Source of the DNA: Brevinematales bacterium | Lineage (GTDB): Bacteria > Spirochaetota > Brevinematia > Brevinematales > Thermospiraceae | Reading direction: 5' to 3' | Assembly (NCBI GenBank): GCA_026417555.1 | Contig: JAOADA010000001.1 | Coordinates: forward strand, 625,502-689,501 | Length of the DNA: 64,000 nt | Shown: positions 47,838 through 56,569 of the stretch, one piece after another | Numbering within the stretch: the first letter of the stretch is position 1 | How the letters are laid out: each line of letters begins with the position of its first letter | Position numbers and translations under genes: made by a program | The notes under the pieces: generated by a model | What the model was told of the DNA's origin: nothing | What the model saw: only the letters and a program-made list of their open reading frames with translations | Database searches by the model: none

Positions 47838-50099
47838 ATGGCTCTAGCTAAAGTGATCAATGTGGTTCAAGAGAAATGTGTTAATTGCCATCGATGTATT
47901 TCTGTCTGCCCTGTGAAATACTGCAACGACGGGAGCGGGGACTACGTCAAGGTAATAGATGATCTCTGTATAGGGTGTGGGGAATGCCTCAAAGCCTGCA
48001 CTCATGACGCTCGTACCGTGGTTGATGATCTCGAAGCTGCCCTTCAAGCCCTTCAAAGAAAAGAGCCTGTCATAGCTATTGTAGCCCCTGCCGCCAGTGC
48101 AAACTTTCCAAACAATTATCTTCGTCTCAATGGATGGCTAAAAAGTATGGGAGTAGCTGCAGTTTTTGACGTAAGTTTTGGAGCAGAACTCACGATCAAA
48201 TCCTATCTTGAACATATAAAAACCAACAAACCCTCCACCGTTATTGCTCAACCCTGCCCCGCTCTTGTCACATACATTGAAATTTATCATCCAGAACTTC
48301 TCCAATTTCTTGCCCCAGCCGATAGTCCCATGATGCACACTATGAAAATGGTCAAAGAATTCTACCCCAAGTATCGCAATCACAAAATCATAATTATCTC
48401 ACCCTGTATTGCTAAGCGTCGTGAATTCGATGAAGTCGGTATAGGAGATTACAACGTCACAATAAGCCGACTCCAACAATACTTTGAACACAATCATATT
48501 ATTCTCGCTAATTACCCAGAAGTGGACTTTGACAATGAACCGGCTGAACGGGCAGTCCTTTTCTCAAATCCAGGAGGACTTCTCGAAACAGCTGCTCGTG
48601 AAGTACCTGAAATCCGGAAGAAAACAAGAAAAATCGAAGGCCCAGCAACTATTTATCACTATCTCTCCCACCTTATCGAAAGTATCAAAAAACAACAACA
48701 ACCTCTCTTGATTGATTGTTTGAACTGTGAGATGGGATGCAATGGTGGCACAGGCACAAATGCCCACACACTCCCAATGGATGAGGTTGAACACTACGTG
48801 AAACAACGAGCAGAACAAATGATAGCCTACTACCGTAAAAAAGGTATCATCCGAAAAACAGAAAAACCAAAAAGGCTTGAAAAACTGATAGAGAAATACT
48901 GGAAACCCGGCCTCTACCACCGCTCATATCAAAACCTCTCTTATCTTCTGGAAAAACACATCAAAAAACCCTCAGAAAAAGAACAAAAAGGGATTTACCT
49001 TCGTTTACACAAGGTATCGGAAAATGATTTTAAAAACTGCTCTGCCTGTGGGTATAATACCTGTGAAGGTATGAGTATTGCTATCTACAACCAATTAAAC
49101 AAAGAAGACAACTGTCACTTCTATCTTCTCAAAGAGCATTTAGAAAACCAAAACCTCATCCTCCAAGACAAAGAAAAGAAAGAAGCTATACTCAATAGCC
49201 TCAATGAAATTCTTCTCAATCTCGAAGAAGGTATCTCCAAACTCACTGCAGCCGCCAAAGAACTTGAAGCTTCAAGCCAAGAGCAGATCAGTGCCGCCAC
49301 AGAACATGCAAGTGGTCTTACAGAAGTAAGTGCCACTATTGAAGAGCTATCTGTCACTGCCAAACAGATAGCTGAAAGTACGGAACAACTTGTTAATGCT
49401 ACTCGCTCTGTCGTTACTATACTCTCTAACAACAAGAACTCTTTAGAGACAGCATATGAAAAAATTACCTACATTAGCAATCTTATCGAACAAAATGCCC
49501 AAGAAGTGATGGATCTCAACAAAAAATCTGTGTTTATTAGTGAAATGGTCAAAATCATCACTGATGTAGCAAACAAAACAAATCTTCTTTCTCTCAACGC
49601 CTCTATTGAAGCAGCTCGAGCAGGTGAAGTAGGAAAAGGCTTTAGTGTCGTTTCAGCAGAGATCCGAGAACTCTCTAAAGAAACTATTTCCTCTGCCAAA
49701 AAGGTAACAAGTGTAGCTGAAGAGATCAAGAGCTTCATCGACAAAATTGTGGAAAATTCTCATCGCGAGGTTCAAGAAATTCGAGATAGTGTTTCTCGAG
49801 TACAAGAAGTCGTCCAATCAACAAATGATATCATGAACGAAATGAATAACAACTACTCTTTCCTTCGCAAGATAGAAATCTCCACAAAACAACAAGAAGT
49901 AGGGACCCAACAGGCTACTGAAACCATGAAACAAATGGCTGAAATATCCAAACAGTCTGTTGAGGTTTCCAACCAAAGCCTCAATTCCGTCAAGGAACTG
50001 GTCGATCTTGCTGATCATCTCAACAAAATTGTTCAGAAACACAGTGCTCACCGAAATCCTACGGCAACCGACCAGATTTCAAAAGGAGGAGAGGCATGA
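47838..50099 (+). CDS. soluble chemoreceptor with [FeFe]-hydrogenase-like sensory domain
   Basis: A 753-residue protein with no membrane segment. Order: two 4Fe-4S clusters (Cys14/17/20/24 and Cys44/47/50/54); an [FeFe]-hydrogenase-like domain (about 75-335) with the four H-cluster cysteines in place: Cys140 in AQPCP, Cys190 in SPCIAKRRE, Cys297 and Cys301 in CEMGC; a further 4Fe-4S domain (Cys401/404/409/426, CSACGYNTCEG); and a chemoreceptor signalling domain (about 440-740) with the hairpin NKTNLLSLNASIEAARAGEVGKGF. The Cys before Cys140 that relays protons in catalytic enzymes is Pro139, which fits a sensor. It probably reports H2, CO or redox state to CheA2. AAGGAGG site; the next gene overlaps by 4 bp. 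Confidence 0.92.
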   Translation: MALAKVINVVQEKCVNCHRCISVCPVKYCNDGSGDYVKVIDDLCIGCGECLKACTHDARTVVDDLEAALQALQRKEPVIAIVAPAASANFPNNYLRLNGWLKSMGVAAVFDVSFGAELTIKSYLEHIKTNKPSTVIAQPCPALVTYIEIYHPELLQFLAPADSPMMHTMKMVKEFYPKYRNHKIIIISPCIAKRREFDEVGIGDYNVTISRLQQYFEHNHIILANYPEVDFDNEPAERAVLFSNPGGLLETAAREVPEIRKKTRKIEGPATIYHYLSHLIESIKKQQQPLLIDCLNCEMGCNGGTGTNAHTLPMDEVEHYVKQRAEQMIAYYRKKGIIRKTEKPKRLEKLIEKYWKPGLYHRSYQNLSYLLEKHIKKPSEKEQKGIYLRLHKVSENDFKNCSACGYNTCEGMSIAIYNQLNKEDNCHFYLLKEHLENQNLILQDKEKKEAILNSLNEILLNLEEGISKLTAAAKELEASSQEQISAATEHASGLTEVSATIEELSVTAKQIAESTEQLVNATRSVVTILSNNKNSLETAYEKITYISNLIEQNAQEVMDLNKKSVFISEMVKIITDVANKTNLLSLNASIEAARAGEVGKGFSVVSAEIRELSKETISSAKKVTSVAEEIKSFIDKIVENSHREVQEIRDSVSRVQEVVQSTNDIMNEMNNNYSFLRKIEISTKQQEVGTQQATETMKQMAEISKQSVEVSNQSLNSVKELVDLADHLNKIVQKHSAHRNPTATDQISKGGEA

Positions 50100-54799: not shown

Positions 54800-56569
54800 A
54801 TGACCCAAACGGATGAGATCCTTCAACTTTTTCAGATGGAAACCGAGAGCCATCTTCAAAAAGCCACCAACGCCCTTCTTCTTCTCGAAAAAGACCCAGA
54901 AAACAAAGAATATATAGCCGAAATCAAACGAGAGATCCATACCCTCAAAGGGGCTAGCCGAATGATGGGATTCAAAAACATCAGTCGCGTTGCCCACCAA
55001 ATAGAAAATCTCTTTGAAAATCTTGAAAATTGTCAAAAAAACCTCTCAAGAGCCATGATATCCACCACCCTAGAGTGGCTGGATTGGATAACAAACGCCT
55101 CAAAATACCTTCCTCAAGAACCCCTCTTACCAGAGGATTTTGAGACACTCTTCCAAAATGCCATTGACGGACTCAAAAGCCCTTCTCCCAAAAGTCCTTT
55201 GTCTACTTCACCTCTCCCTGAAGAAAAATCCCCTTCTACAGAAAAGCCCCTCTCTTCCCCTTCTTCTCTCCCTCAGACAGGTAAGCCCACCCATGAACCC
55301 AAAAAAGACAAAACAGACTATCTCACTCTACGTTTCGACAGAATAAAAAATCTTTTAAACTTTAGCAATATTTTTACCAATTACATTGGGAAATTTCGTT
55401 ATTACGCAGACCAACTCAACATTGAATCCCTTGCCAAACAATCAAAAGATGAGATACTGAGTTTTCTTGAAAACCTTCAAAGTCAGTTTTCCTATGATAT
55501 TCGCTTTTATGAACTCTACACCAAACAATTCCAGGATCAGGTTTCCTCAATGATACTTGTTCCACTAGGCGGTATTTTCAATACTTTTCCTCGTCTTGTA
55601 AGGGATGTTGCTCTAAGTACGGGAAAAGAAGTGAACTTCACCATGGAAGGAAAAGAAATCGAAGTAGATAAACAACTCATTGAACATATTCAGAATGTCT
55701 TGATCCATCTTCTTCGCAACGCTGTCGACCATGGGATAGAACTCCCAGAAGAACGCCAAAAAAAAGGCAAGCCTCCCATAGGAAATATAAGCCTCAAAGC
55801 CTATACCCAAATGGATAGGATTGTGCTCGAGGTTTCTGATGATGGAAAAGGCCTCCAAACGCAAAAAATTCTTGGGAAAGCCCTTTCAAAAGGACTAATA
55901 TCTGCAGAAAAAGCAAAAGAAATGACACCTCAAGAAATATGGCAACTCATTTTTCTCCCTGGTTTCTCTACCAAAGAAGATATTAGTGATTTCTCTGGAA
56001 GAGGTGTAGGTATGGATGTGGTTGCTGATACCCTCAGGCGTTTTAACAGTGAAATCACTATCAAGTCAGAGGAAAACAAAGGTACCTCTTTTATTCTCAG
56101 TTTTCCTATAAATTCTTCGATCATTTCTATTACTCTCTTTGAAAGCCACAATACGTTGTATGCCTTTCCTTCCCTTAATATAGATCAGGTTCTTCTCCTT
56201 CAGGAACAAAAAACCAACCTACTCGAAGAAGAATGGATGCTCGAGTACAAGCACCGCTGGATTCCTCTTTTGTCTATTGAGAATCTTCTCGGATATGAAG
56301 AAACTACCACTCCAAAAGAGAATATCATTGTGATCTCCCTCCAAAACAAATACTACGGAATTGTAGTGGAAAAAGTGATCGGAGAAATGAGTATTGTGAT
56401 AAAAAGTCTCACGGGCCTTTCGGAAAAAATACGTATCCTTGCTGGTGTCCTTTCTTTGAGTAGAAGAGATGTTCTCGTTCTCAACGCTCTTGAGCTTATT
56501 GAACTCTATAGACAACGACACACACGTTCACAAGAAAACACCAAAATACGAAAAGTTCCCTCATACTGA
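54800..56569 (+). CDS. cheA: histidine kinase CheA lacking a P2 domain, second system
   Basis: A 589-residue kinase, about 150 residues shorter than the CheA at 39-41 kb. Hpt domain with His47 in EIHTLKGASRMMG; then, instead of a P2 docking domain, only a Pro/Ser/Lys-rich linker (about 125-172); dimerisation helices (about 175-275); ATPase with LIHLLRNAVDHGIEL, VSDDGKGLQ and GRGVGMDVV; C-terminal CheW-like domain. Without P2, its response regulators must dock elsewhere, for example on the kinase core. AGGAGG precedes the ATG. It ends the operon, and the only terminator nearby reads from the other strand. Confidence 0.95.
   Translation: MTQTDEILQLFQMETESHLQKATNALLLLEKDPENKEYIAEIKREIHTLKGASRMMGFKNISRVAHQIENLFENLENCQKNLSRAMISTTLEWLDWITNASKYLPQEPLLPEDFETLFQNAIDGLKSPSPKSPLSTSPLPEEKSPSTEKPLSSPSSLPQTGKPTHEPKKDKTDYLTLRFDRIKNLLNFSNIFTNYIGKFRYYADQLNIESLAKQSKDEILSFLENLQSQFSYDIRFYELYTKQFQDQVSSMILVPLGGIFNTFPRLVRDVALSTGKEVNFTMEGKEIEVDKQLIEHIQNVLIHLLRNAVDHGIELPEERQKKGKPPIGNISLKAYTQMDRIVLEVSDDGKGLQTQKILGKALSKGLISAEKAKEMTPQEIWQLIFLPGFSTKEDISDFSGRGVGMDVVADTLRRFNSEITIKSEENKGTSFILSFPINSSIISITLFESHNTLYAFPSLNIDQVLLLQEQKTNLLEEEWMLEYKHRWIPLLSIENLLGYEETTTPKENIIVISLQNKYYGIVVEKVIGEMSIVIKSLTGLSEKIRILAGVLSLSRRDVLVLNALELIELYRQRHTRSQENTKIRKVPSY

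What the first reader, a model, noticed from the sequence alone, without database searches (positions are those of the whole stretch)
47838..56569. Complete second chemosensory operon built on a hydrogenase-like soluble receptor
Seven tightly packed plus-strand genes encode a soluble receptor with an [FeFe]-hydrogenase-like domain, CheB, CheR-TPR, a receiver-PP2C phosphatase, two CheW-like proteins and a CheA. Every part needed for a closed signalling circuit is there, including methylation-based adaptation, and the window's main che operon (37.6-44 kb) is separate. Sensory hydrogenases and PP2C phosphatases are known neighbours in some clostridia, and chemoreceptor fusions to this domain exist. 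The full combination with its own Che set and a phosphatase output is, as far as I know, not characterised. I infer sensing of H2, CO or redox state.
Basis: partly seen in the sequence, partly recalled or inferred. Interest (0 to 1): 0.93.

Follow-up and report, generated by a model that had tools for sequence, protein, structure and literature searches.

The report
Hydrogenase-headed chemosensory circuit with phosphatase output
A bacterium of the spirochaete group carries a seven-gene chemosensory operon whose receptor has a hydrogenase-like head where a relative's matching operon has a membrane sensor, and whose predicted output is a phosphatase, so the cell likely senses hydrogen gas or redox state with it and would switch genes rather than steer swimming.

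Summary
Window 47838-56569 (+) is a tight seven-gene operon: soluble receptor ([FeFe]-hydrogenase head, MCP signalling tail), CheB, CheR-TPR, receiver-PP2C phosphatase, CheW, divergent CheW, CheA. The same order occurs in Thermospira aquatica and a Brevinematales MAG. The head keeps the cysteines for an H-cluster and three [4Fe-4S] clusters; the genome encodes HydE, HydF and HydG. The receptor type is not new: it fits HydDB "group C2, chemotactic (putative)", and 3805 proteins match it at E<=1e-60.

The new part is a domain swap. A genome of another spirochaete family has the same seven genes with an ordinary membrane receptor. The window receptor's tail is 50% identical, gap-free, to that receptor and 43-54% identical to 68 membrane receptors, but 20-32% to tails of other hydrogenase-headed receptors. 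A tree nests it among the membrane receptors (100/99). The simplest reading is that a hydrogenase head was put onto an existing "alternative cellular function" cassette.

Likely mechanism: H2 or redox state changes the head, CheA2 phosphorylates the receiver-PP2C, and a partner-switching anti-sigma pathway responds; CheR and CheB adapt it. Ligand, cofactor loading and phosphatase target are inferred. New variant of a known kind.

The parts
47838..50099 (+). HydMCP: soluble chemoreceptor with [FeFe]-hydrogenase head, 753 aa
47877..47999 (+). two N-terminal [4Fe-4S] binding motifs (Cys 14/17/20/24 and 44/47/50/54)
   Evidence: each Cys in at least 62 of 64 rows and in 120 of 120
48066..48749 (+). 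H-domain; H-cluster cysteines C140, C190, C297, C301 and K193; P139, S188, L295 at sites that vary between hydrogenase groups
49038..49115 (+). C-terminal Cx2Cx4Cx16C cluster motif (C401, C404, C409, C426), as reported for putative sensory hydrogenases of groups C and D
   Evidence: Pfam FeS hit 20.1 bits, under its cut-off of 23
49188..50042 (+). MCP signalling hairpin, of a family otherwise found on membrane receptors
49269..49298 (+). strict methylation consensus ASSQEQISAA (residues 478-487)
50096..51157 (+). CheB (receiver plus methylesterase)
51176..52621 (+). CheR with C-terminal TPR-like region
52602..53825 (+). receiver-SpoIIE/PP2C phosphatase, predicted output; likely phospho-acceptor D60; GDISGHG, TDG and DD motifs present
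53818..54318 (+). CheW1
54320..54796 (+). CheW2, divergent, CheW fold by prediction only
54800..56569 (+). CheA2 (HPt with likely phospho-acceptor H47, HATPase, CheW-like P5)

Best explanation
The operon encodes a dedicated chemosensory pathway in which a cytoplasmic [FeFe]-hydrogenase head, apparently swapped in for the membrane sensor of a spirochaete cassette, likely detects H2 (or the redox poise it sets) and would drive a phosphatase output instead of a flagellar CheY. Shown by sequence: the gene set, the conserved order, the intact cluster ligands, the signalling tail shared with membrane receptors, and HydE, HydF, HydG and a separate hydrogenase gene in the genome. Inferred: the head carries an H-cluster made by HydEFG and changes shape with H2; the change passes through the C-terminal cluster region into the coiled-coil hairpin; CheW1, CheW2 and CheA2 bind the tip; CheA2 phosphorylates the receiver of the PP2C protein and CheB; the phosphatase removes phosphate from a STAS anti-anti-sigma protein elsewhere in the genome, setting off a partner-switch (RsbV/RsbW-type) response; CheR-TPR and CheB adapt the receptor so that changes in signal, not absolute level, are reported.
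For: Tail: 50.4% identical over 284 residues without gaps to the G034 receptor; 43-54% to 68 membrane receptors, 62 of 68 gap-free, against 20-32% in the 102 of 113 other hydrogenase-headed proteins whose alignment exceeds 150 residues; tree clade 100/99. By my count of the alignments the hairpin is 14 residues longer in each arm than two other MCPs of the genome and 14 longer in the N arm than Tsr, which hints at a separate array. Head: cluster ligands and K193 in 120 of 120 relatives; S188 and L295 fall where TamHydS, a working group D enzyme, has serine and leucine in place of M353 and M497 (PMC8163306, passages); the fold matches [FeFe] hydrogenases, best E 1.3e-16. HydG, HydE and HydF each have one match over cut-off, within about 5 kb. 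ACF reading: CheR-TPR plus multidomain regulator (PMC3447774). Possible targets: nine STAS matches in the genome, three of them with DSSGLG or DSSGIG, one beside a HATPase_c_2 protein at C11:205 kb.
Against: No experiment on this receptor was found. The group A proton-transfer cysteine (C299) is proline here, so turnover would be low. A clostridial survey discarded, at its validation checks, sequences that were mainly groups 4f and C2, and its Table 1 has no group C entry; for [FeFe] enzymes the check asked for an H-domain motif (PMC9431212, section 5). TamHydS work found the C-terminal cluster not reduced by H2 (PMC13104023, passages). No STAS or anti-sigma gene lies in the operon, and the genome has 14 SpoIIE matches, so the target is open. 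REC-PP2C also occurs with a membrane receptor, so the output says nothing about H2. The tail family is rare in sampled genomes: 5 of 392 at E<=1e-35. Against Thermotoga 2ch7 the hairpin aligns with only a small gap, so its heptad class is not settled.
Confidence: 0.55

Rival explanations
1. The head is a redox or iron-sulphur sensor without H2 chemistry: the [4Fe-4S] clusters report ferredoxin/NADH poise or O2, and the [2Fe] subsite is not loaded.
For: Twelve ligands for three [4Fe-4S] clusters are invariant; the proton-transfer cysteine is lost; a survey discarded mainly 4f and C2 sequences at its checks.
Against: The four H-cluster cysteines and K193 are invariant too (120 of 120); the genome has HydEFG, although these also serve the other hydrogenase.
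Confidence: 0.25
2. The receptor feeds the main flagellar array and mediates H2 taxis, with the PP2C protein as a side branch.
For: HydDB names the class chemotactic; the main che cluster lies 4-5 kb away in the window.
Against: Own CheA, two CheWs, CheR-TPR and a multidomain regulator mark an ACF pathway; the hairpin is longer than in two other MCPs of the genome; in Thermospira no che gene other than the seven was found in the fetched 16 kb (L172).
Confidence: 0.12
3. The head is a degenerate fold kept as a scaffold, without metal clusters.
For: Only 30% identity over 287 columns to the other hydrogenase of the same genome.
Against: All 21 ligand and pocket positions checked are invariant in 120 of 120 relatives; a dead fold would drift.
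Confidence: 0.04

Closest known systems
HydDB [FeFe] group C2, 'Chemotactic (putative)' (PMC5037454)
   Same: [FeFe]-hydrogenase domain tied to an MCP; proposed H2 sensor.
   Different: Other hydrogenase-headed receptors compared have tails 20-32% identical to this one. Of 75 fetched loci, many cut short, only L001 had this full operon. The tail here belongs to a membrane-receptor family.
ACF chemosensory pathways with CheR-TPR (PMC3447774), e.g. Wsp
   Same: CheR-TPR, other Che proteins and a multidomain output regulator; phosphatase is among the output domains listed there.
   Different: Hydrogenase head; two CheWs; receiver-SpoIIE output with unknown target.
Group D sensor TamHydS and group C sensor TmHydS (PMC8163306, PMC10055695)
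   Same: C-terminal Cx2Cx4Cx16C motif; C299 replaced (proline in about 10% of sensory sequences); Ser and Leu in place of M353 and M497 as in TamHydS.
   Different: Pfam finds no PAS domain here (TmHydS has one); the head is followed directly by a chemoreceptor hairpin.
HydDB group C3, 'Phosphatase-linked (putative)'
   Same: Sensory hydrogenase tied to a serine/threonine phosphatase.
   Different: Here the link would run through CheA phosphotransfer (inferred).
   Same: Same seven-gene order; 50% identical signalling tail.
   Different: 4HB/HAMP membrane receptor, no hydrogenase domain.

Membership tests
[FeFe] hydrogenase (H-domain) | four cysteines that hold the H-cluster | tested here: met
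   C140, C190, C297, C301: 64 of 64, 120 of 120
[FeFe] hydrogenase (H-domain) | hydrogenase fold | tested here: met
   the 50 best Foldseek matches listed are [FeFe] hydrogenases, E 1.3e-16 to 5.9e-14, 424-456 columns, TM-score by target length 0.45-0.65
[FeFe] hydrogenase (H-domain) | bound H-cluster and reaction with H2 | not testable with these tools
   needs protein
[FeFe] hydrogenase (H-domain) | group A proton-transfer cysteine (C299) | tested here: not met
   proline in 62 of 64 and 120 of 120; also not conserved in groups C and D
HydDB group C2 | hydrogenase domain tied to an MCP | tested here: met
   one ORF with both domains
HydDB group C2 | falls in the C2 cluster of the HydDB similarity network | not tested
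   HydDB not available
ACF chemosensory pathway | multidomain response regulator together with CheR-TPR | tested here: met
   REC-SpoIIE clear; TPR hits weak, E 7e-5 to 6e-4 and below cut-off; criterion
ACF chemosensory pathway | controls something other than motility | not testable with these tools
   needs genetics
RsbU/SpoIIE partner-switching phosphatase | SpoIIE domain with metal-binding Asp motifs | tested here: met
   (motif roles recalled)
RsbU/SpoIIE partner-switching phosphatase | cognate STAS and anti-sigma kinase in the operon | tested here: not met
   none among the seven genes; candidates elsewhere
MCP with CheR-docking pentapeptide | C-terminal pentapeptide | tested here: not met
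   protein ends in ...ISKGGEA; pentapeptide form recalled

The most novel reading that the evidence does not exclude
A complete, adapting H2-sensing circuit that does not steer: evolution unplugged a membrane ligand sensor from a spirochaete chemosensory cassette and plugged in a hydrogenase head, so that dissolved H2 sets, through CheA phosphotransfer to a PP2C phosphatase, a sigma-factor partner switch. This would join HydDB classes C2 and C3 in one pathway and show that chemosensory cassettes accept metalloenzyme heads as modular inputs.
Probability: 0.45. Interest if true: 0.78.

Novelty: new variant of a known kind. Interest (0 to 1): 0.62.

Why it matters
The listings of my paper searches showed no biochemistry of a chemoreceptor-fused [FeFe] hydrogenase, although thousands of genes of this type exist. 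This operon offers a small, self-contained version with its own kinase, adaptation enzymes and a predicted enzymatic read-out, plus a natural control: the same cassette with a membrane receptor. It makes the question of how a hydrogenase signals directly testable.

Tried and rejected
A STAS domain just upstream of the hydGEF cluster looked like a target, but the reading frame looks like the end of a SulP-type transporter (by eye), so I dropped it. A search for the cassette CheA in G034's order covered two genomes and found it in G034 alone. G012 (same genus) has CheA2, CheW2, CheW1, PP2C and part of CheR at 68-85% identity, but the contig ends at CheR, so its receptor is unseen; no receptor of this kind was found elsewhere in that assembly. 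A further weak tail hit, G141 (37%, E 4e-37), was not followed. Gene context of the 68 membrane-headed relatives could not be fetched; one shares a contig length (138307) with a REC-PP2C relative (P0135, P0210), and hydrogenase-headed P0007 shares one (306930) with P0202. These are hints, not shown linkage. Of the seven hydrogenase-headed receptors with this tail in the protein search (P0001-P0007), only the window's and Thermospira's were seen in the operon; L001/G010 is the third operon seen.

Rows and limits. One search kept 63 locus proteins by span and length. The structure alignment used 35 of the 120 listed relatives. The tail tree took every third of the 68 membrane rows and every fifth of the 113 other hydrogenase-headed rows; six rows without a recognised tip motif (P0113, L023, L030, L173-L175) were left out, so the orphan receptors of the same order are not in it. 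It has long branches among the other hydrogenase-headed rows, an unsettled bootstrap and a midpoint root. The head tree is a quick one with every fourth of the 113 rows. The membrane rows were found by similarity to the tail, so their higher identity is partly selection; the counter-check is that the tail search (7999 candidates scored, 75 at E<=1e-40) returned hydrogenase heads in P0001-P0007 only. Promoter scan: 23 found, 18.6 expected (sd 4.9), uninformative.
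Full report
What is there. The window lies in a 2.04 Mb genome rated 98.18% complete. Its near relatives are Thermospira aquatica (P0006; G011, same genus, has a contig of the same length) and Brevinematales MAGs (L001). At 47838-56569 there are seven plus-strand genes, overlapping or at most 18 bases apart: a 753-aa soluble receptor, CheB, CheR with a weak TPR signal, a receiver-SpoIIE/PP2C phosphatase, CheW1, CheW2 and CheA2. 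CheW2 matches no Pfam or NCBIfam family at E<=0.001, but its predicted structure (pLDDT 89.7) has only CheW and CheA chains among its 18 best PDB matches. Expected motifs of CheA2, CheB, CheR and PP2C are present (their roles are recalled).

The head. The N-terminal half is an [FeFe]-hydrogenase domain by profile, by sequence against solved structures and by predicted fold. The eight N-terminal cluster cysteines, the four H-cluster cysteines, K193 and the four cysteines of a C-terminal Cx2Cx4Cx16C motif are present in 120 of 120 listed relatives, one of which is the window's own protein, and in at least 62 of 64 rows of a second set drawn from genome contigs. The proton-transfer cysteine of catalytic enzymes is proline, and the two methionines that frame the diiron site are serine and leucine. 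The TamHydS paper (PMC8163306, passages) reports serine and leucine at these sites in that enzyme, non-conservation of C299 in groups C and D, and the same C-terminal motif; the TmHydS paper gives proline at C299 in about 10% of sensory sequences (PMC10055695, passages). The genome encodes HydG, HydE and HydF, one match each over cut-off, within about 5 kb, and one other [FeFe] hydrogenase, whose neighbours look like bifurcating HydB and HydC (by eye). So cofactor supply is likely, but cofactor loading is untested.

What is already known. [quoted passage not shown] The receptor type is widespread: 3805 proteins, the window's own included, at E<=1e-60 among 7997 scored candidates; the 120 listed all carry the MCP signalling domain. 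Heads of the same family also sit on histidine kinases (L040, L041, L064). CheR-TPR clusters with multidomain regulators, phosphatase among the output domains, are described as ACF pathways (PMC3447774, abstract and passages). So the parts are known; the question is the combination.

The swap. In the order, 13 genomes were searched with the head. Six have a hit below E 1e-170: G000, G010 and G011 carry it in the seven-gene operon; G006-G008 carry it without che genes nearby, next to an oxidoreductase gene group. Searching CheA2 in 296 genomes of the phylum gave close hits in G012, G010 and G011 and one more distant clear hit, G034 (39%, E 4e-117); the next best was E 1e-76. G034 has the same seven genes in the same order, but its receptor has a 4HB sensor and HAMP domain and no hydrogenase domain. 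The window receptor's tail is 50.4% identical to that receptor over 284 residues with no gap. A protein-database search with the tail alone returned 75 proteins at E<=1e-40: seven hydrogenase-headed ones, the window's own included, and 68 others, 59 of which list HAMP or Cache domains. All 68 have a strongly hydrophobic segment; none of the seven does, and 1 of 113 other hydrogenase-headed proteins does. Those other hydrogenase-headed proteins have tails only 20-32% identical (102 of 113 with alignments over 150 residues). In a tree of 60 tails the seven form one clade (100/98) inside a clade with the 24 membrane rows (100/99), with P0121 and G034 nearest (96/87), away from the 22 other hydrogenase-headed rows. 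In a tree of heads the seven form one group (SH-aLRT 91) among soluble heads. The simplest reading is one replacement of a membrane sensor by a hydrogenase head in the line of these Brevinematales. In genomes the tail family is rare: 5 of 392 sampled genomes of the phylum at E<=1e-35.

How it likely works. H2, or the redox state that H2 sets, changes the head; the change passes to the coiled-coil hairpin; CheA2 activity changes; the receiver of the PP2C protein is phosphorylated; the phosphatase acts on a STAS protein; an anti-sigma partner switch follows; CheR and CheB adapt the receptor at sites such as ASSQEQISAA (residues 478-487). By my count the hairpin is 14 residues longer per arm than in two MCPs beside the third che cluster, which hints at a separate array; its alignment to a Thermotoga receptor needs only a small gap, so the heptad class is not settled. 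All these steps are inferred. A study of TamHydS found that its C-terminal cluster is not reduced by H2 (PMC13104023, passages), so signalling by redox change of that cluster is doubtful and a shape change is more likely.

The output. The genome has 14 SpoIIE matches, nine STAS matches and ten HATPase_c_2 matches, seven over cut-off. Three STAS proteins show DSSGLG or DSSGIG, the usual phosphoserine motif (recalled): L092, right behind another SpoIIE gene, L094, and L098 at C11:205 kb beside a HATPase_c_2 protein; the pair at C22:143 kb has ATAALG. No link of any of these to the operon is shown.

Against. A survey of clostridial acetogens discarded, at its checks, sequences that were mainly groups 4f and C2; for [FeFe] enzymes validation asked for an H-domain motif, and no group C entry is in its Table 1 (PMC9431212, section 5). 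The lost proton-transfer residue predicts low turnover, which suits a sensor but is no proof. The REC-PP2C output is shared with the membrane-receptor cassette, so it does not itself speak for H2.

Literature. The listings of my searches of the held library (some capped below the number of papers found) showed no paper on the biochemistry of a chemoreceptor-fused [FeFe] hydrogenase or on this cassette. Most papers of subscription journals are not held. Work on treponeme hydrogen sensors by Ballor and Leadbetter is recalled; I saw only citations of other papers of theirs.

Verdict. A real, conserved operon; a new variant of known kinds (group C2 type receptor, ACF cassette), most simply explained by a head exchange. 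Interest 0.62.

Noticed in passing
window 47838-50099, residues 29 and 294: Two further cysteines are almost invariant: C29 in 63 of 64 rows and C294 in 63 of 64 rows and 120 of 120 relatives. C294 sits three residues before an H-cluster ligand; role unknown.
   Followed up: partly
L125 (G000:C11:34000-50000): A third che cluster with CheA, CheR, CheB, receivers and two MCPs, plus a divergent MCP-like protein.
   Followed up: partly
L125:140-1420 and L125:2936-4216: Two 426-aa ORFs whose printed first 60 residues differ at one position, an apparent gene duplication.
   Followed up: no
L173-L175: Orphan hydrogenase-headed MCPs next to an oxidoreductase gene group: a complex I 49-kDa-type subunit and an iron-sulphur/pyridine-nucleotide oxidoreductase by Pfam in L173, with several short ORFs between.
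   Followed up: partly
L117:8970-14273: hyd maturation cluster: a small TM1266-like protein (named by recall), HydG, HydE, an aspartase-like gene (by eye), HydF.
   Followed up: no
L040, L041, L064; P0095; L052: The same head family fused to histidine kinases with PAS domains, to an MCP domain followed by GGDEF, and to HAMP_2 plus MCP.
   Followed up: no
L004, L006, L007, L023, L030, L046, L047, L052: Hydrogenase-headed MCPs whose fetched locus (up to 10 kb each side) also holds a CheA: with L001, 9 of 75 loci. CheA is about 1,000 aa in four of them.
   Followed up: partly
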